Below the pieces are notes generated by a model. It saw nothing but the letters and a program-made list of their open reading frames with translations, searched no databases and was not told the origin of the DNA. From a virus, in IMG/VR virus record IMGVR_UViG_3300025886_000152, positions 1 to 24,798 of that record: a stretch of DNA of 24,798 nt; one strand, 5' to 3'. Each line of letters opens with the position of its first letter. Position 1 is the first letter of the stretch. Below, in pieces: positions 2 through 23,451 of the stretch. Both the position numbers and the translations under genes were made by a program.

Positions 2-1819
2 GCAAAAGTCAAGTGGTTGTCACAATTTGCGGCATCAGAACTTGCTAAGTCTCACGACGTTAAGTTGAAAGCAAAAGACTACATGGAATCTCTATCATTT
101 AGTGATTTGCGTAAAAATCTTGAAGAATCATCTAAAGAGTCTGTGGAACTTGATGAAGCAATTGACTTCCGTAAAGCACATCAAGAAATCATGGCATATG
201 CCAAGAAGAGTGGTGGTATTGACAAGACTGACTTTGAGAAGGTTGCATACTACGTCAAAGCAATCGGTGACAATCAGAACACACCTAACGTAGCAAACAA
301 AGCATTCATGGCAATGAAGAAGTTTGTTGGTGATATGGATACTGATCCCCGTGATGGTGTGATGTTGATGCTCAAGAAGCATGGTATGATGAAGAATGGT
401 CGTTTGGTGCAAGAGTCTATTACCGAAGGTGCGCTCGGAAAACAATGGGTAAATGGTGCAAAAAGGGTTAAATCTGGTAGTATCACTCTAGTAAAAGCAA
501 AGTTTGCTTACGATTTACATACTGTGATGAAAAATGGTAAGAAGGTTGGTACTTTTGTTTTCGACGATGGTCCAGACGCATTCTCGGTAACGAATATGTC
601 TACCAAGAAAGTCAGTTGGGCAGATCAGATCGATGATATTCCTAAAATGTTTGAGTCGAAAGCGCCTGCACTAAAAAGTTCAGATTATGCGAAAGGTACT
701 TATCAATCTGCACAGGCATTCAAAGATAAGTTTGCCAAAAAGAAGAAAGAGAAGAAAGAGTCTGTTGATGAAGCATCTAAAGAAGGTACGGTTCGTATCA
801 TTGATTTGGGTAACAAAGGACAAGACAAAATTCGTAAAGAGTTGGGTGTTGATAAACTTCCAAACAAAGGTTTCCAAGTACAGGTTATGACTAAGGGTAA
901 ATTTGTAAACCAAGGTAAACCTTACAAGACTATGAAGGATGCAGAGAAAGTTCGAAGTACTGGACAACACTCAATGCAGTTCGATGAAGCAGCACTTGAA
1001 GAAAAGACTAAGTGGAAAATGGGTGATGGTCGTCCAAGAAACGGTGCTCGCATAGAGAACGAAAGATTCTGGGACTTACCGTATGATTCTTTAAAGTATA
1101 TCGCCAAAGATGCTGGTGAGGCCATGAAAGCCAATCCCACCGCAAGGAAGGCAACTACTGGACCGGGCAACTGGGCAGACCAAGTTGCGGATGCTGCCAC
1201 AGTCATGCAATGGAGAAAGAAAAACGGTATTAGGGAGTCTGTAGAACTTGATGAAGCTATGTACAAAGTTGAAATTGAAGGATTGCCTACAACATATGTT
1301 GATGGTGCTAGTCCTGGCGAAGTCAAGAACGTACTCAGAAGGTTGCTGAAAAAACCTGACTATATTCGTATGGTCAAACGTGCACCCGAAGCAGAGATGA
1401 AGCAGTATTTCCGTATGAAAGCTGCGGGTAAAGATGTGGATGAAGCATTCGAAAACGAACTCGATGAAGCCGTTGATAAAACAATGTTAGCAAAAGTTGA
1501 TAAACTTATGGAGCCCACACAATCCGCAAAACAAGCAATTGAAATCGTTGCTAAAAAATTGACTGCTGGTGATAAGAAAAAGGCGGAAAAACTCGTTAAG
1601 CAAGTCTTAAACAGTTATCTTGGAGAAAAATTGGATCCTGTCGGACAAGCCGATGCTGATATTGATAACGATGGTGATGTTGATAAGTCAGACAAATATC
1701 TGAAAAATCGCAGAAAAACAATTAAAAAAGCCATCAAGAAAGTCAAAAAAGAAAAAGATCCTAAAACGATTAGCGGTAAACAAGAAAAAGTAGAAGTAAG
1801 TCCTAAAGTAGACTTATAA
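2..1819 (+). CDS. Modular virion/head protein, probable prohead polyprotein (5' end outside window)
   Basis: The open frame runs in from the window edge: codons from base 2 are in frame, so the TTG at 17 is unlikely to be the true start. Numbering from that TTG, about 600 residues are visible. They look like unrelated small domains joined by acidic linkers with E-L-D-E-A or V-D-E-A motifs at residues 44-48, 250-253, 411-414, 474-477 and 482-485. Recognisable modules are a segment around 351-405 (FWDLPYDSLKYIAKDAGEAM) and one at 415-472 (YKVEIEGLPTTYV), both types I know from marine T4-like structural proteins. Residues 548-559 form an EF-hand/dockerin-like calcium loop (DIDNDGDVDKSD). The C-terminus is very lysine-rich. 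The linkers fit the T4 gp21 prohead protease rule [L/I]-x-E|[A/G/S], so I infer an internal head polyprotein. The exact role is unknown. A late promoter for the next gene overlaps its stop codon. Confidence 0.75.
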   Translation, partial: AKVKWLSQFAASELAKSHDVKLKAKDYMESLSFSDLRKNLEESSKESVELDEAIDFRKAHQEIMAYAKKSGGIDKTDFEKVAYYVKAIGDNQNTPNVANKAFMAMKKFVGDMDTDPRDGVMLMLKKHGMMKNGRLVQESITEGALGKQWVNGAKRVKSGSITLVKAKFAYDLHTVMKNGKKVGTFVFDDGPDAFSVTNMSTKKVSWADQIDDIPKMFESKAPALKSSDYAKGTYQSAQAFKDKFAKKKKEKKESVDEASKEGTVRIIDLGNKGQDKIRKELGVDKLPNKGFQVQVMTKGKFVNQGKPYKTMKDAEKVRSTGQHSMQFDEAALEEKTKWKMGDGRPRNGARIENERFWDLPYDSLKYIAKDAGEAMKANPTARKATTGPGNWADQVADAATVMQWRKKNGIRESVELDEAMYKVEIEGLPTTYVDGASPGEVKNVLRRLLKKPDYIRMVKRAPEAEMKQYFRMKAAGKDVDEAFENELDEAVDKTMLAKVDKLMEPTQSAKQAIEIVAKKLTAGDKKKAEKLVKQVLNSYLGEKLDPVGQADADIDNDGDVDKSDKYLKNRRKTIKKAIKKVKKEKDPKTISGKQEKVEVSPKVDL

Positions 1820-1822
1820 ATA
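1815..1822 (+). promoter_or_regulatory. T4-type late promoter TATAAATA
   Basis: The octamer TATAAATA is a perfect match to the T4 late promoter -10 element used by the gp55 sigma factor. It overlaps the stop codon of the upstream gene and lies 26 bp before the start of the Ig-like virion gene, leaving room for a leader with AGGAGAG as ribosome binding site. Confidence 0.7.
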
Positions 1823-8748: not shown

Positions 8749-9152
8749 TGTGGAAATATAAAAATCAAGAGTTTATTTCTGAAATGATTGGTGACTCTTA
8801 TGGATTCGTCTATGAGATCACCGACACAGAAAATAAAATGAAGTATATTGGTAAGAAGTGGTTTTGGAGCACGAGGAAAAAACCCCCGCTGAAAGGCAAA
8901 ACCCGAAAGCGTATAATAAAAACCGAATCCGATTGGATGAAGTATTACGGGTCGAGCGAAGAAGTCAAACTCCTAGTTGAGCAGGAAGGTACCGAAAGAT
9001 TTGCACGAGAGATCTTGAGGTTGTGTAAGACTAAGGGCGAATGTAGCTATTGGGAACTAAAATATCAGCTGGAATATGATGTTCTATTGAAGCCCGATGA
9101 GTACTACAATTCTTTTGTTGGAGCAAAAATACACAGGAACCATGTAATATGA
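8748..9152 (+). CDS. GIY-YIG-like nuclease, putative
   Basis: The 134-residue protein shows G19-F-V-Y22 and K-Y33-I-G35-K-K, a fair match to the two strands of the GIY-YIG nuclease core. Downstream candidates for catalytic residues are R87 (RFAREIL) and E103 (YWELKYQ). The segment W63-M-K-Y-Y-G-S-S and the closing YYNSFVG also fit this family in phages. It could be a free-standing homing-type or DNA-processing nuclease; no attached DNA-binding domain is visible, so function in the phage is uncertain. The start overlaps the zinc-ribbon stop, and the end overlaps ClpP by ATGA. Confidence 0.65.
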   Translation: MWKYKNQEFISEMIGDSYGFVYEITDTENKMKYIGKKWFWSTRKKPPLKGKTRKRIIKTESDWMKYYGSSEEVKLLVEQEGTERFAREILRLCKTKGECSYWELKYQLEYDVLLKPDEYYNSFVGAKIHRNHVI

Positions 9153-9733
9153 GTGAGATTATGAAAGAATCTAACGTAGTAAGAAATCCAGTACCAATTG
9201 GGTTTATCTTCAACATATACCTCAGCGGTGATATCAAATCATCTGAAGAATATCTTGATGCTTTTGAGGTAATAAGAAACGCACAGCAGAATGATATCGT
9301 CTACATCCACATCAACTCACATGGCGGTGATGTTTCCACAACCATACAGTTTATTCGTTGTATGGGAGATTCTAAAGCGCACATAGTATGCTCGGTTGAA
9401 GGCTACTGCATGTCAGCAGCGACTATGATATTTTTGTGCGGAAACTCTTTTGAGATTTCTGACCATTCTGTCTTTATGTTTCACGATTATTCCGGCGGCA
9501 CGTTTGGCAAGGGTGGAGAAATGTACGATCAAATTACACACGAGCGAAAATGGACCGAGGGCATCCTCCAAGACATCTACCAAAACTTCCTTAACAAAGA
9601 AGAACTGGAATCTTTGATTGGTGGTAAGGACATTTGGATGACTGCAAAGGAAGTGTCATCGAGATTGCATAAACTCAACAAACTCGAAGAAGAAAAAGAC
9701 AAGAGAAAATCAAAAGCTAAAAAAACTAAATAG
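9149..9733 (+). CDS. clpP: ClpP-like serine protease
   Basis: This is a ClpP/crotonase-fold peptidase of 194 residues, close to the usual bacterial length. The nucleophile is S89 in GYCMSAATM, the histidine is H112 in VFMFHDYSGG, and D161 in GGKDIWMTA completes the triad. An oxyanion-type INSHGGDV motif lies at 55-62. The C-terminus ends in a Lys/Glu tail (KLEEEKDKRKSKAKKTK) not typical of host ClpP. T4-like marine phages often carry such a gene. It could act with a host ClpX/ClpA or process virion proteins; the sequence does not decide. The start codon overlaps the preceding stop (ATGA). Confidence 0.88.
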   Translation: MSEIMKESNVVRNPVPIGFIFNIYLSGDIKSSEEYLDAFEVIRNAQQNDIVYIHINSHGGDVSTTIQFIRCMGDSKAHIVCSVEGYCMSAATMIFLCGNSFEISDHSVFMFHDYSGGTFGKGGEMYDQITHERKWTEGILQDIYQNFLNKEELESLIGGKDIWMTAKEVSSRLHKLNKLEEEKDKRKSKAKKTK

Positions 9734-9939: not shown

Positions 9940-10737
9940 ATGGCACAGGAGGGTTTTTTATACGAAGCCAATGTAGCGAAGTGTCTACAAGACTACGGTT
10001 TAGTTAAAAAAAACTATGTTCCTGCAGGCGCATCTTCGGATCGACCAGACTTAGATCTTTTTATAAAAGGCATAGAGTATGGGTGCGAATTAAAAAAAGA
10101 TTTGGCGTCTGCGGGCTCCCTTGTCATAAAATACAATAATGCGGCCGCATCTTTTTCTTTTGGTGACACGAATGGTGCTAAAGAAAAAGAATTTATGAAA
10201 GGTTTGGGTGTTACTAATAAGGTGCTTGCCGCCATCAAATCGAAGTGGAAAAAGAAACTTTGGATTGCCGAAGATCGGGATGAAAAGTGGGTAAAAAGAT
10301 GGGAGGATGCTGGCCAGCCTGACGTTAAGGAAAGGTACAGTCAAGACCTGAAAAACTGTCCAGACATATTTTTTGACTTACCGTCAGACACTATCGAAAA
10401 ATATTATAACCTAAAAGACACATATTACCTGAATGTTGGTACGCATGGTTTTTTCCTATTGGGGCCTAAAGATCCAGCAAAAATGAACGTCAAAACCACA
10501 CCCAAAATCCCCAGATGGTCAAACTCCCATCGAGCAGTTCTTAGAATTCGCATACAATCTAAGGGTGTAACAAAAGCTCTCGCTCAAGAGAAGAGTTTAA
10601 AGAGGCCCACCGGAGGGCAAGGCTACCAAATAACGATGGAAATACAGTTCAAATCTGTCGCAAAATCGCCGTACAATATCGGTCCAGTCTCAAAAGGCAG
10701 TGCAAGTATCATAAAAGGTTTGGTAAAACTGCCATAA
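9940..10737 (+). CDS. PD-(D/E)XK nuclease-like protein
   Basis: The N-terminal 60 of 265 residues carry a PD-(D/E)XK pattern: E9 in the first helix (GFLYEANVAKCL), P36-D-L-D39 and then C-E50-L-K52. This arrangement resembles restriction-endonuclease and Holliday-resolvase folds. The rest (residues 90-265) is unfamiliar, with a DTYYLNVGTHGFFLLG strand pair and a basic region with GGQGYQITMEIQFK. I infer a DNA endonuclease, perhaps for host DNA breakdown or recombination. There is no assigned name. It ends 4 bp before a strong promoter. Confidence 0.6.
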   Translation: MAQEGFLYEANVAKCLQDYGLVKKNYVPAGASSDRPDLDLFIKGIEYGCELKKDLASAGSLVIKYNNAAASFSFGDTNGAKEKEFMKGLGVTNKVLAAIKSKWKKKLWIAEDRDEKWVKRWEDAGQPDVKERYSQDLKNCPDIFFDLPSDTIEKYYNLKDTYYLNVGTHGFFLLGPKDPAKMNVKTTPKIPRWSNSHRAVLRIRIQSKGVTKALAQEKSLKRPTGGQGYQITMEIQFKSVAKSPYNIGPVSKGSASIIKGLVKLP

Positions 10738-10741
10738 AAAC

Positions 10742-10770
10742 TTGACATATGCTCCAAAATCATGTAGAAT
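10742..10770 (+). promoter_or_regulatory. Strong sigma70-type promoter
   Basis: TTGACA (10742-10747), a 17-bp spacer and TAGAAT (10765-10770) sit between two genes. The inverted repeat AATTAC-ATA-GTAATT (10768-10782) overlaps the -10 and the likely start point. The small gene at 10801 follows behind AAGGAG. Confidence 0.8.
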
Positions 10771-10800
10771 TACATAGTAATTTGATGATAAGGAGTGGTT

Positions 10801-11016
10801 ATGCAGGTACGTCAGGAGGTCACAGACTGGTCTAAGGCCGATTATAGGGTTCCCCAACACATTTACATCACCTCTGGGTCGATGCTCGTGGGATACGTCC
10901 CAGAGGGCACCACAGAAGCGATTATTTTCTCAAATCCAAAAAAACAGTGGAGCCCCTCTCGCCGAAAGTTCCGAAATCTCACCAAAGCCGAGATTAGAGG
11001 AATATCTGGAATATAA
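10801..11016 (+). CDS. Small conserved-type early protein, function unknown
   Basis: The product has 71 residues. ATG 10801 is preferred because AAGGAG (10790-10795) is 5 bp upstream; an in-frame GTG at 10795 overlaps that site. Visible segments are HIYITSGSMLVGYVPEGTTE and a basic C-terminal part (KKQWSPSRRKFRNLTKAEIR). I do not recognise a named family. It is the only gene between two promoters, so it is probably transcribed at high level early in infection (inference). Confidence 0.65.
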   Translation: MQVRQEVTDWSKADYRVPQHIYITSGSMLVGYVPEGTTEAIIFSNPKKQWSPSRRKFRNLTKAEIRGISGI

Positions 11017-11044
11017 TGTATTCCAAAATTTCATCAAAAAACGC

Positions 11045-11073
11045 TTGAAATTTGACCCATATTGTGCGATAAT
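11045..11073 (+). promoter_or_regulatory. Sigma70-type promoter for the restriction-modification-like cassette
   Basis: TTGAAA (11045-11050), a 17-bp spacer and GATAAT (11068-11073) precede the nuclease gene. A perfect 10-bp palindrome, TAAGTACTTA (11073-11082), follows directly. The -10 and leader (11069-11092) are repeated at 12478-12501. Confidence 0.65.
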
Positions 11074-11105
11074 AAGTACTTAATCAATCAGAAATGAGAA
11101 ATGAT

Positions 11106-11699
11106 ATGGATTTATCTGTTTCGGCTATTAGATGCGGTGTCAAGGATTATGTCTCAGAGCAGAACCAAGATCACTGGATTGGTACTGCTTATGAAGGATA
11201 TAAGTTTTTAGGTAACAAACAAAAAGGACAGTTTGGTGAAAAGATTATTGACGATTTGTTCAGAAGTCTCGGATGCAAAGTAACCAAACCTAGCAATACC
11301 GGACACGACTCTGTAGTCAACGGTATTCGCATGGAATATAAGTTCTCATTGTCTCAACAGAAGAATGGTATCATTCAGAAGAACTCATGGATGATGAATC
11401 ATGTTGCTGAAGGTAAAGATTGGGAATGGCTGCTCTTTGCCGGTGTTAATCCTGAGGGCACTGATGATGTTGTAGGGTTGCTTTCTAAAGAAAACTTTGT
11501 TAAAATACTCAGAACAGAAAATGAGATTAAGATGAAAGTTCGTGCCAAAGGACAGTTACGTAACAAGTTTTTTGGTGCACAACAAGGTGGTAATAAAGCA
11601 GACAATGACGATTGGATGAGTGGTTCTAGATCATTGGTCGCTTTATTAAATTCAGAATATATGATAGGAGTTGACGAATGGTTGCAGACTTACGGTTAG
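11106..11699 (+). CDS. Restriction-endonuclease-like PD-(D/E)XK protein
   Basis: The 197-residue protein carries a clear nuclease signature near its middle: G-Q-F-G-E-K (the helix glutamate), then SNTGHD (catalytic Asp) and R-M-E-Y-K (E-x-K). Numbered from the alternative ATG at 11094, these are E49, D72, E81 and K83. ATG 11106 is chosen because GAGA lies 6 bp upstream; 11094 has no visible ribosome binding site. The product resembles small type II restriction enzymes. The gene overlaps the methyltransferase gene by 22 bp, so the two are probably translated together. This supports a paired restriction-modification role, although a role in host DNA degradation is also possible. Confidence 0.7.
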   Translation: MDLSVSAIRCGVKDYVSEQNQDHWIGTAYEGYKFLGNKQKGQFGEKIIDDLFRSLGCKVTKPSNTGHDSVVNGIRMEYKFSLSQQKNGIIQKNSWMMNHVAEGKDWEWLLFAGVNPEGTDDVVGLLSKENFVKILRTENEIKMKVRAKGQLRNKFFGAQQGGNKADNDDWMSGSRSLVALLNSEYMIGVDEWLQTYG

Positions 11700-12424
11700 G
11701 AAATTGCTTAGAAATTCTACCAACGCTGCCTGATGACAGTGTGGACATGTTGATGGTAGATCTACCCTACGGTACTACTGCTTGTAAGTGGGATAGTATC
11801 ATACCTCTAGATGAATTGTGGAAACAATACAATCGCATCTGTAAGAAGAATGCTGCTATGGTATTTACGGCTCAACAGCCATTTACGACCACCCTAGCCT
11901 CGTCTAATCTTAAAAATCTACGATACGAGTGGATCTGGGAGAAGCCTCAGGGTACGAATCCAATGAATGCTAAAGTGATGCCTCTCAAAGCACATGAAAA
12001 TGTGTTAGTGTTCTATCGCGCTAAACCCACCTATAATCCTCAAATGTGGTTGTCCACACCATATGGTGGTTTTAAATCAGATACCGCCAAAATTGGTGAA
12101 GTCTATGGTTCAGCACAATCAAAACATCGTGACAATCCAGAGGGCACCAGATACCCCAAAAGCGTCCAGAAATGGAAACAAGAGAAAGGTTATCATCCTA
12201 CTCAAAAACCCGTTTCCATGATGGAATATCTCATTAAGACGTATTCCAACGAAGGTGACACGGTGCTTGATAATACAATGGGTAGTGGCACCACTGGTGT
12301 AGCCAGTATCATGTCAAAACGAAATTTTATTGGTATTGAAATGGATTCAAATTATTACGAAATCGCCAAAAAACGCATCTCCGAAGTAGAAAATATCGCC
12401 ACTCTTAATAACTTTTTAGCATAA
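11678..12424 (+). CDS. DNA methyltransferase, beta class (N6-adenine or N4-cytosine)
   Basis: The product transfers a methyl group from S-adenosylmethionine to an exocyclic amino group of a DNA base. In 248 residues the motifs occur in beta-class order. Motif IV D28-L-P-Y31 (the DPPY box, with Leu at the second position) is near the N-terminus. HPTQKP at 173-178 (motif X region) and the SAM-binding D198-N-T-M-G-S-G-T-T-G (motif I) lie near the C-terminus, followed by F-I-G-I-E221-M-D. Start ATG 11678 is 7 bp after AGGAG. The target sequence cannot be read from the protein. Its overlap with the nuclease gene suggests that it protects phage DNA from that enzyme. Confidence 0.88.
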   Translation: MVADLRLGNCLEILPTLPDDSVDMLMVDLPYGTTACKWDSIIPLDELWKQYNRICKKNAAMVFTAQQPFTTTLASSNLKNLRYEWIWEKPQGTNPMNAKVMPLKAHENVLVFYRAKPTYNPQMWLSTPYGGFKSDTAKIGEVYGSAQSKHRDNPEGTRYPKSVQKWKQEKGYHPTQKPVSMMEYLIKTYSNEGDTVLDNTMGSGTTGVASIMSKRNFIGIEMDSNYYEIAKKRISEVENIATLNNFLA

Positions 12425-22103: not shown

Positions 22104-22747
22104 ACTGCAACCTACCACCCTTCGTGTGTTTGATACGAGACGAATACTTGTATGACCACACTAAAGGGCACGGCGAGTTCACCGTAGCAGAGATTCATAG
22201 TGTTGCTAGTATGGAGAGGCGAGTGCCTCTTTTCGAAACGCTATTAGAAAATGGTGTGAACTGGACTAGAAGACCCATCACAGCATTTTGTTGGAAAAAA
22301 GACGCACCAATTTATCCGTTAGAGATGCATCATTATTGGGATTGTTTTTCACCTTACGTCAATGTCAATGTGAGGAATAGACTTGCGAGAAGGCGCGCCG
22401 AGTTAATCGACCACAAAGGTGGGCGCCACTGGGGTGAGTATATGTTCACACTGGATTGGTCTTGGGAAGATCGCACGATACTCGACACAAACTTTTCAGA
22501 AGATCCGGAACATAAGTGCTGTCATATGTTTAAGATGGATGATGGTAATTTCTTCGGGTATCCCAACAACCGCATAGTATGGACAGACGATTCGTACATA
22601 TACAACCGTCTCAATAAGAACCCCGGCTACATAATCGACCACAAGATTTACAATGTGGAGAGTAGACGCCCAGTGGAAACTGAGACTGACGATAACTATA
22701 TGACAGAGTTTGGTGCTGATGTCGGTGTCAGTTACGACAAAGTATAA
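22091..22747 (+). CDS. Conserved-type marine phage protein, function unknown (GTG start)
   Basis: The 218-residue product probably starts at GTG 22091, with GGGGGA at 22082-22087 as ribosome binding site; no ATG is available before residue 40 (SMERR). The N-terminal LPPFVCLIRDEYLYDHTKGH and the segment RRVPLFETLLENGVNWTRRP are distinctive and recall T4-like marine phage proteins. The middle is rich in W, H and Y. There is no nuclease or kinase motif that I can place. The late promoter for the kinase overlaps its stop. Confidence 0.65.
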   Translation: MAFLNCNLPPFVCLIRDEYLYDHTKGHGEFTVAEIHSVASMERRVPLFETLLENGVNWTRRPITAFCWKKDAPIYPLEMHHYWDCFSPYVNVNVRNRLARRRAELIDHKGGRHWGEYMFTLDWSWEDRTILDTNFSEDPEHKCCHMFKMDDGNFFGYPNNRIVWTDDSYIYNRLNKNPGYIIDHKIYNVESRRPVETETDDNYMTEFGADVGVSYDKV

Positions 22748-22750
22748 ATA
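22743..22750 (+). promoter_or_regulatory. T4-type late promoter TATAAATA
   Basis: A perfect TATAAATA overlaps the stop of the upstream gene and lies 26 bp before the kinase start, the same spacing as the element at 1815 in front of the Ig-like virion gene. It is the only perfect late element in the early/accessory region. Confidence 0.7.
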
Positions 22751-22776
22751 AAGGTTTCAATAAGTAGATTACCAAT

Positions 22777-23451
22777 ATGTTAAGATTTTCACAATTCTTG
22801 GAAGAGGGTGTCAACGACCCCGCAATCTTTAAAGCAATATTCTTGGCTGGAGGCCCCGGCAGCGGTAAATCGTTTATGATTGGGCAGACAGCTCTAACTT
22901 CTCTTGGGTTTCGGCTCGTTAACTCTGACCACGCATTTGAAATCGCAATGAAGAAAGCCGGCGAAGAGATGTCACCCGAGTTCATCGGTAGCGACAAAGG
23001 GCAGAGCATGCGCAACGCAGCAAAAACTCTTACGGGTAAGCAACAAGAGTTGTACCTCAAAGGGCGCCTCGGGGTTGTCATCGATGGTACCGGCAGAGAC
23101 TACGCTAAAATCTCGTCGCAAGCCAATCAGATGAAGAAGTTAGGTTATGATGTAGGTATGTTGTTCGTCAATACCAATCTCGAAACCGCAAAAGATCGCA
23201 ACCAAGCTCGTGCTAGAACGTTGCCTGATGATGTGGTGACGGGTTCTTGGAATGACGTACAGAACAACATTGGTAAGTTTCAGTCGTTCTTTAGACAGAA
23301 CATGATGATTGTCGATAACAGCGATGGCGCTGATTGGAAATCTGGTACGATGAAAGGTTTCAAGTGGGCAACAAAATTTGCAAAGCAGCCACCACAGAAC
23401 GCTGCGGCTATTAAATGGATTGCCAGTCAGAAGAAAGGTCGAGCAGTTTAG
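22777..23451 (+). CDS. P-loop kinase (zeta-toxin/AAA_33-like) with T4-type capsid-targeting leader
   Basis: The 224-residue protein has a Walker A, G25-G-P-G-S-G-K31-S (FLAGGPGSGKS), and a Walker B-like V-V-I-D103-G-T-G-R-D. A VNSDHAFE segment (D51) and an arginine-rich lid (RNQARART) are as in zeta-toxin-type and small-metabolite kinases. The substrate is unknown. Residues 1-11 (MLRFSQFLEE|G) match the T4 internal-protein leader MKTYQEFIAE|A: aromatic at 4, F7, I/L8 and E10 before a small residue. With the late promoter, this suggests that the protein is packaged in the head, trimmed by the prohead protease and delivered with DNA (inference). The ribosome binding site is weak. Confidence 0.75.
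   Translation: MLRFSQFLEEGVNDPAIFKAIFLAGGPGSGKSFMIGQTALTSLGFRLVNSDHAFEIAMKKAGEEMSPEFIGSDKGQSMRNAAKTLTGKQQELYLKGRLGVVIDGTGRDYAKISSQANQMKKLGYDVGMLFVNTNLETAKDRNQARARTLPDDVVTGSWNDVQNNIGKFQSFFRQNMMIVDNSDGADWKSGTMKGFKWATKFAKQPPQNAAAIKWIASQKKGRAV

What the first reader, a model, noticed from the sequence alone, without database searches (positions are those of the whole stretch)
22743..23451. A kinase that may be packaged in the capsid and injected
Seen: the P-loop protein starts MLRFSQFLEE-G and has a perfect TATAAATA late promoter, although its neighbours have sigma70 promoters. Known: T4 internal proteins carry a 10-residue capsid-targeting sequence (MKTYQEFIAE) cut by gp21 before a small residue. 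The match covers length, aromatic residue 4, F7, I/L8 and E10. Inferred: a zeta-toxin/small-kinase-like enzyme is made late, packed, trimmed to G11 and delivered with the DNA, to act in the first minutes of the next infection.
Basis: partly seen in the sequence, partly recalled or inferred. Interest (0 to 1): 0.75.

Follow-up and report, generated by a model that had tools for sequence, protein, structure and literature searches.

The report
Injected phage kinase with capsid-targeting tag
A marine T4-like phage makes a small kinase carrying the same short address label that tells phage T4 to load proteins into its head, and relatives show that dozens of unrelated phage proteins wear this label and that labelled ones turn up in purified virions, so the kinase is probably injected into the next host with the DNA.

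Summary
ORF 22777-23451 (224 aa) is a P-loop kinase starting MLRFSQFLEE|G, with a perfect TATAAATA 34 nt upstream. The packaging reading is well supported, though not shown for this protein itself.

In 69 of 69 distinct relatives the junction is (L/I/M/V/F)-x-E|G, with a hydrophobic residue two before the Glu and a variable residue between: the pattern of T4 gp21 cleavage. A DNA-pattern scan that ignores homology found the same leader on about 67 unrelated protein families. Where only the first eight residues were fixed, residue 10 was Glu in 41 of 46.

I then tested the leader on a published virion proteome. In cyanophage S-CREM2 the four ORFs matching a motif fixed beforehand are all among the 52 virion proteins (0 of 167 undetected ORFs). 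In S-SCSM1 one of two is. Neither paper, in the passages read, mentions a targeting signal.

The enzyme is nearest to polynucleotide kinases and zeta toxins. Relatives are fused to nucleotidyltransferases, a DUF6267 domain with a ligase-like KxDG motif, a HAD nucleotidase and an ADP-ribosyltransferase-like domain. Best reading: a T4-IP/Alt-type packaged effector, trimmed to G11, perhaps healing nucleic-acid ends. The substrate is unknown.

The parts
22743..22750 (+). TATAAATA, T4-type late-promoter-like box, 34 nt before the ATG
   Evidence: same -34 spacing for the head-protein gene at 1849
22777..23451 (+). Pnk/zeta-like P-loop kinase ORF, 224 aa
   Evidence: (AAA_33 5.8e-11; Zeta_toxin 2.2e-09)
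22777..22806 (+). Leader residues 1-10, MLRFSQFLEE: capsid-targeting-like sequence (F4, F7, L8, E10)
   Evidence: rules for residues 4, 7, 8, 10 from PMC9026906
22807..22836 (+). Predicted new N-terminus after gp21-type cleavage, GVNDPAIFKA, conserved in relatives and in fused versions
22849..22872 (+). Walker A motif GGPGSGKS (residues 25-32)
   Evidence: invariant; aligned with T4 Pnk K15/S16
22927..22929 (+). D51, invariant, aligned with general base D35 of T4 Pnk
23197..23217 (+). Lid RNxxRxR (R141, R145, R147), aligned with T4 Pnk R122/R126
17..1819 (+). Related feature: long ORF (5' end outside the window) with 10 (L/I/V/M)xE(A/G/S) sites, 1.85 expected; carries a domain that occurs elsewhere behind the same leader (L169) and a stretch shared with virion protein SSCSM1_92: candidate polyprotein of internal modules
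1815..1822 (+). Second TATAAATA at -34, before head-protein-like gene 1849-2700

Best explanation
The protein is a CTS-tagged internal head protein. It is made late; its first ten residues (F4, F7, L8, E10) load it into the prohead core. The gp21-type prohead protease cuts E10|G11, the mature kinase stays in the head and is ejected with the DNA into the next host. There the kinase, of the polynucleotide-kinase/zeta superfamily, most likely phosphorylates nucleic-acid or nucleotide ends to counter host damage or defence at the start of infection. Shown here: the leader, its conservation, its portability, its link to virion presence in two published proteomes, and the kinase fold and catalytic residues. 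Inferred: loading and trimming of this protein, injection, and the substrate.
For: Junction (L/I/M/V/F)xE|G in 69/69 distinct relatives with variable P2, both stand-alone (54) and fused or long (15). Homology-free scan: 115 of 123 pattern hits lie at plausible ORF starts, in about 67 single-linkage families. Fixing only the first 8 residues, residue 10 is E in 41/46. S-CREM2: all 4 ORFs matching the regex set (SAM hydrolase, APH/ChoK-like kinase, cytidylyltransferase, one hypothetical) are among the 52 virion proteins; chance 0.003, or 0.00035 among non-structural ORFs. S-SCSM1 NMNAT, MKSFLQFLKE|A, is a virion protein. T4 ipII/ipIII start MKTYQEFIAE|A. Contigs of three relatives encode Peptidase_S77/gp21. 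Atu_ph07: the kinase domain sits in a protein of a tandem array whose members start M(K/R)W..L(T/N)E; 29 proteins of that gene block were found in virions (PMC6102473). Structure and T4 Pnk alignment.
Against: No virion data exist for this phage or for any stand-alone relative. One of two leader ORFs in the examined part of S-SCSM1 (SSCSM1_30) was not detected. The S-CREM2 and S-SCSM1 authors note that co-purified proteins cannot be excluded. E10-G11 could be partly structural in this family. HTVC008M and Melnitz have shorter, deviant leaders. gp21 is not on this 24.8-kb fragment. R38 of T4 Pnk is replaced by F54, so 5'-OH kinase activity is uncertain.
Confidence: 0.8

Rival explanations
1. 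The leader is only the N-terminal part of the kinase fold; the likeness to the T4 signal is fortuitous and the kinase is an ordinary enzyme made during infection.
For: GVNDPAIFKA after the leader is highly conserved and presumably structural. The kinase family alone could keep E-G for folding reasons.
Against: The same leader precedes about 67 unrelated families. In the model residues 1-3 and 6-8 are below pLDDT 50. Leader ORFs are virion proteins in S-CREM2. P2 varies while P1 and P3 are fixed.
Confidence: 0.1
2. Packaged as above, but the enzyme belongs to NAD salvage: with NMNAT-like nucleotidyltransferases it forms a NadR-like pair that restores NAD+ against NAD-depleting defences.
For: Fused behind CTP_transf_like domains in L016 and L021 and L133; next to a cytidyltransferase gene in HTVC008M. 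NMNAT-like proteins are in cyanophage virions.
Against: No AAA_28 hit, which I recall as the Pfam family of the NadR kinase. The nearest folds are polynucleotide kinase, zeta toxin and adenylate kinase, not NadR. The same kinase is also fused to DUF6267, a Pol-beta-type nucleotidyltransferase and an NT5C-like HAD domain.
Confidence: 0.2
3. Packaged zeta-toxin-like kinase that poisons cell-wall precursor (UDP-GlcNAc) synthesis or otherwise shuts the host down.
For: Pfam Zeta_toxin above its cut-off; zeta toxin among the best folds.
Against: Zeta's partner antitoxin was not seen in the ORF list, though not searched for by profile. The lid motif and spacing follow T4 Pnk. AAA_33 scores better than Zeta_toxin.
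Confidence: 0.15

Closest known systems
T4 internal proteins IPI/IPII/IPIII (capsid targeting sequence)
   Same: Short N-terminal leader with aromatic residue 4, F7, hydrophobic 8 and E10 before a small residue; predicted gp21 cut; predicted injection.
   Different: Known IPs are small inhibitors of GmrSD restriction enzymes (PMC12373910); here the cargo is a kinase. Host clade and cargo set differ.
T4 Alt (packaged, injected ADP-ribosyltransferase)
   Same: An enzyme carried in the head with a short propeptide removed by gp21.
   Different: Different enzyme and leader. The link is indirect: in Atu_ph07 the kinase is fused behind an ART-like domain (my reading of the sequence) in a tandem array.
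T4 polynucleotide kinase (PseT) and bacterial Pnk kinase domain
   Same: Walker A, D35 equivalent, lid R122/R126 equivalents; hhalign E 6.6e-07; 1ly1 TM 0.76 over the target.
   Different: No R38 equivalent; carries the leader; the stand-alone form has no phosphatase domain, though L241 has an NT5C-like HAD domain.
Polyvalent (injected multidomain) phage proteins, PMC5512222
   Same: The same sort of effector domains joined in different orders and thought to be delivered with DNA.
   Different: There separation is ascribed to built-in peptidases; here LxE|G/A junctions suggest the prohead protease.

Membership tests
CTS-tagged T4-type internal head protein | About 10-residue leader, aromatic 4, F7, L/I8, E10 | tested here: met
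   rule from PMC9026906
CTS-tagged T4-type internal head protein | gp21 site (L/I)xE before a small residue, conserved | tested here: met
   69/69 relatives E|G, hydrophobic P3
CTS-tagged T4-type internal head protein | Leader is portable (on unrelated cargo) | tested here: met
   about 67 families
CTS-tagged T4-type internal head protein | Phage encodes gp21-type protease | tested here: inconclusive
   Window is a fragment; found on 3 of 20 contigs of relatives and annotated in HTVC008M
CTS-tagged T4-type internal head protein | Late expression | tested here: inconclusive
   TATAAATA at -34; 11/60 relatives
CTS-tagged T4-type internal head protein | Protein present and trimmed in the virion | not testable with these tools
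   Only other leader proteins have published data
T4 Pnk-type polynucleotide kinase | K15/S16, D35, R122, R126 | tested here: met
   K31/S32, D51, R141, R145 by hhalign
T4 Pnk-type polynucleotide kinase | R38 (acceptor phosphate contact) | tested here: not met
   F54 at that place
Zeta toxin | Zeta fold/profile | tested here: met
   Pfam 37.5 bits, cut-off 22.3
Zeta toxin | Cognate antitoxin gene alongside | tested here: inconclusive
   None obvious among neighbouring ORFs; no profile search done
NadR | AAA_28-type ribosylnicotinamide kinase domain (family recalled from memory) | tested here: not met
   No AAA_28 hit for the window protein; below cut-off in Atu_ph07

The most novel reading that the evidence does not exclude
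Marine T4-like phages run a large CTS-addressed injection programme. A ten-residue leader, plus gp21 sites inside polyproteins, loads dozens of unrelated enzymes into the head, among them a nucleic-acid end-processing set (Pnk-like kinase, HAD phosphatase, DUF6267 with a KxDG motif, CCA/poly(A)-type and HIGH-type nucleotidyltransferases) that acts before any phage gene is expressed.
Probability: 0.45. Interest if true: 0.88.

Novelty: new variant of a known kind. Interest (0 to 1): 0.74.

Why it matters
It offers a readable sequence rule for which of the many unknown proteins of abundant marine T4-like phages travel in the virion and enter the host first. Cyanophage proteomics papers found an NMNAT-like enzyme, an APH-like kinase, a SAM hydrolase and Cas9 in virions and could not exclude contamination; the leader is a simple explanation for most of them. 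It also makes injected counter-defence in ocean phages directly testable.

Tried and rejected
A single-sequence search of IMG/VR found nothing; the alignment query worked. TATAAATA as stand-alone proof was rejected: the count is near chance and it is common before other genes. The shifted control pattern was not a clean control, because leaders with E at both places match both patterns. A broad leader regex on S-CREM2 gave only p = 0.026 (4/28 against 5/167) because it also matches unrelated starts; the loose LxE regex gave p = 0.24; the regex fixed earlier is the one relied on. PADLOC gave no hit. A profile search of PDB sequences gave only weak adenylate kinase, PSTK and zeta hits. The window's long first ORF has no BLAST relative among phage records but matches by domain. 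Direct proof from Atu_ph07 failed: the supplementary protein list could not be opened.

Full report
Observation. The ORF, its leader and the TATAAATA box are as described. The box count alone is near chance (3 against 1.24 expected), but it lies at -34 here, at -34 before a head-protein-like gene at 1849, and upstream in 11 of 60 distinct relatives, mostly at -31 to -39. Sigma-70-like promoters do stand before neighbours. The window is a 24.8-kb IMG/VR fragment. Its gene order (a block of virion-type genes, then primase and ribonucleotide reductase) is that of marine T4-like phages such as Syn1, P-SSM7 and S-SCSM1.

Relatives. tblastn finds the kinase in Melnitz, HTVC008M and Atu_ph07 phages, and an alignment query finds at least 519 relatives in IMG/VR. 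Of 69 distinct ones, 54 look stand-alone and 15 fused or long; all 69 have E|G at the junction, with L, I, M, F or V two residues before the Glu and nine different residues between. That is the rule of T4 gp21, which cuts after L/I-x-E (PMC9026906). Of the 54 stand-alone leaders 27 match a broad leader regex outright; several others match from a nearby alternative start, and the rest have a leader of different spacing. Fused relatives keep the junction after other domains.

Portability. With related leaders found nearby they fall into 67 single-linkage families, including the kinase, HIGH-type nucleotidyltransferases, DUF6267, ADP-ribosyltransferases and a poly(A)-polymerase-type enzyme. One contig, L231, has seven leader proteins. 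In ORFs chosen only by residues 1-8, residue 10 is E in 41 of 46, while residue 11 is looser than in T4 (S, A, K, E and others).

Independent test. Published virion proteomes were then used. S-CREM2 (PMC10665884, Table 3) has 52 of 219 ORFs in the virion. The regex fixed, with E at position 10, matches four: ORF6 SAM hydrolase MKDFDSFLEE, ORF14 APH/ChoK-like kinase MKRFDAFLTE, ORF136 MQTFSMFFSE and ORF154 cytidylyltransferase MKNFSSFLTE. All four are virion proteins; no undetected and no structural ORF matches (sequences; chance 0.003, or 0.00035 among non-structural ORFs). Seen afterwards and so not counted: ORF13 MKDLHSFLTE, ORF15 MNFSEFNES, and Cas9 ORF12 with RFASFMAEA shortly after its annotated start. 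In S-SCSM1 (PMC9602691) the virion NMNAT begins MKSFLQFLKEA, but a second leader ORF, SSCSM1_30, was not detected; about 85% of that genome was examined. Neither paper, in the passages read, mentions a targeting signal, and both say co-purification cannot be excluded. In part of the T4 genome (50-148 kb) a wider regex finds ipII, ipIII and one false hit.

The enzyme. AlphaFold gives pLDDT 86 and pTM 0.82, with residues 1-3 and 6-8 disordered. The best solved folds are bacterial polynucleotide kinase, zeta toxin and T4 Pnk. hhalign to T4 PseT gives E 6.6e-07 and aligns K15/S16, D35, R122 and R126 with K31/S32, D51, R141 and R145, while R38 is F54 (the roles of the T4 residues are from general knowledge). 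Fusion partners are CTP_transf_like (L016, L021), DUF6267 (L080), a Pol-beta-type nucleotidyltransferase (L045) and an NT5C-like HAD domain (L241, below Pfam's cut-off). In Atu_ph07 it lies behind an ART-like domain, in a tandem array whose members start M(K/R)W..L(T/N)E, inside a gene block with 29 MS-identified virion proteins (ART-like by its YRGM motif only, since Pfam gave no ART hit). An end-healing role is the reading I favour, at modest confidence; NAD salvage and a zeta-like toxin remain open.

Beyond the finding. The window's first ORF (17-1819, open at the window edge) has ten (L/I/V/M)xE(A/G/S) sites (1.85 expected for a closely similar motif after shuffling). It contains a domain that in L169 follows the leader MKSFSEFMSEG (E 8e-12), and a stretch shared with SSCSM1_92, a virion protein. 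It may be a polyprotein of internal modules.

What is not shown: this kinase in a virion, its trimming, its injection and its substrate.

Noticed in passing
window 17-1819: Long ORF with repeated VELDE|A-type sites and a domain found elsewhere behind the same leader; possible polyprotein of internal head modules.
   Followed up: partly
L364:12322-19230 (Atu_ph07 gp54-gp61): Tandem array of mostly about 255-aa paralogues, each starting M(K/R)W..L(T/N)E and most with a YRGM motif: looks like Alt-type ARTs with an 8-residue leader.
   Followed up: partly
S-CREM2 ORF12 (L365:7704-10313, minus strand): Cas9-annotated virion protein has RFASFMAE|A about 25 residues in: perhaps a packaged nuclease with a misannotated start or a longer leader.
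   Followed up: no
L231: One contig has seven different leader-bearing proteins, one an ART-PolyVal domain.
   Followed up: partly
L133 (minus strand ORF of 429 aa): Nucleotidyltransferase with leader MKQFSKFLTE|G joined to the kinase by EDLITE|G: two predicted gp21 sites in one protein.
   Followed up: partly
window 9149-9733: ORF with a ClpP-like stretch (INSHGGDVSTT); not analysed.
   Followed up: no
window 9940-12424: ORF 11678-12424 looks like a DNA methyltransferase (DLPYG) behind ORFs that could be nucleases; not analysed.
   Followed up: no
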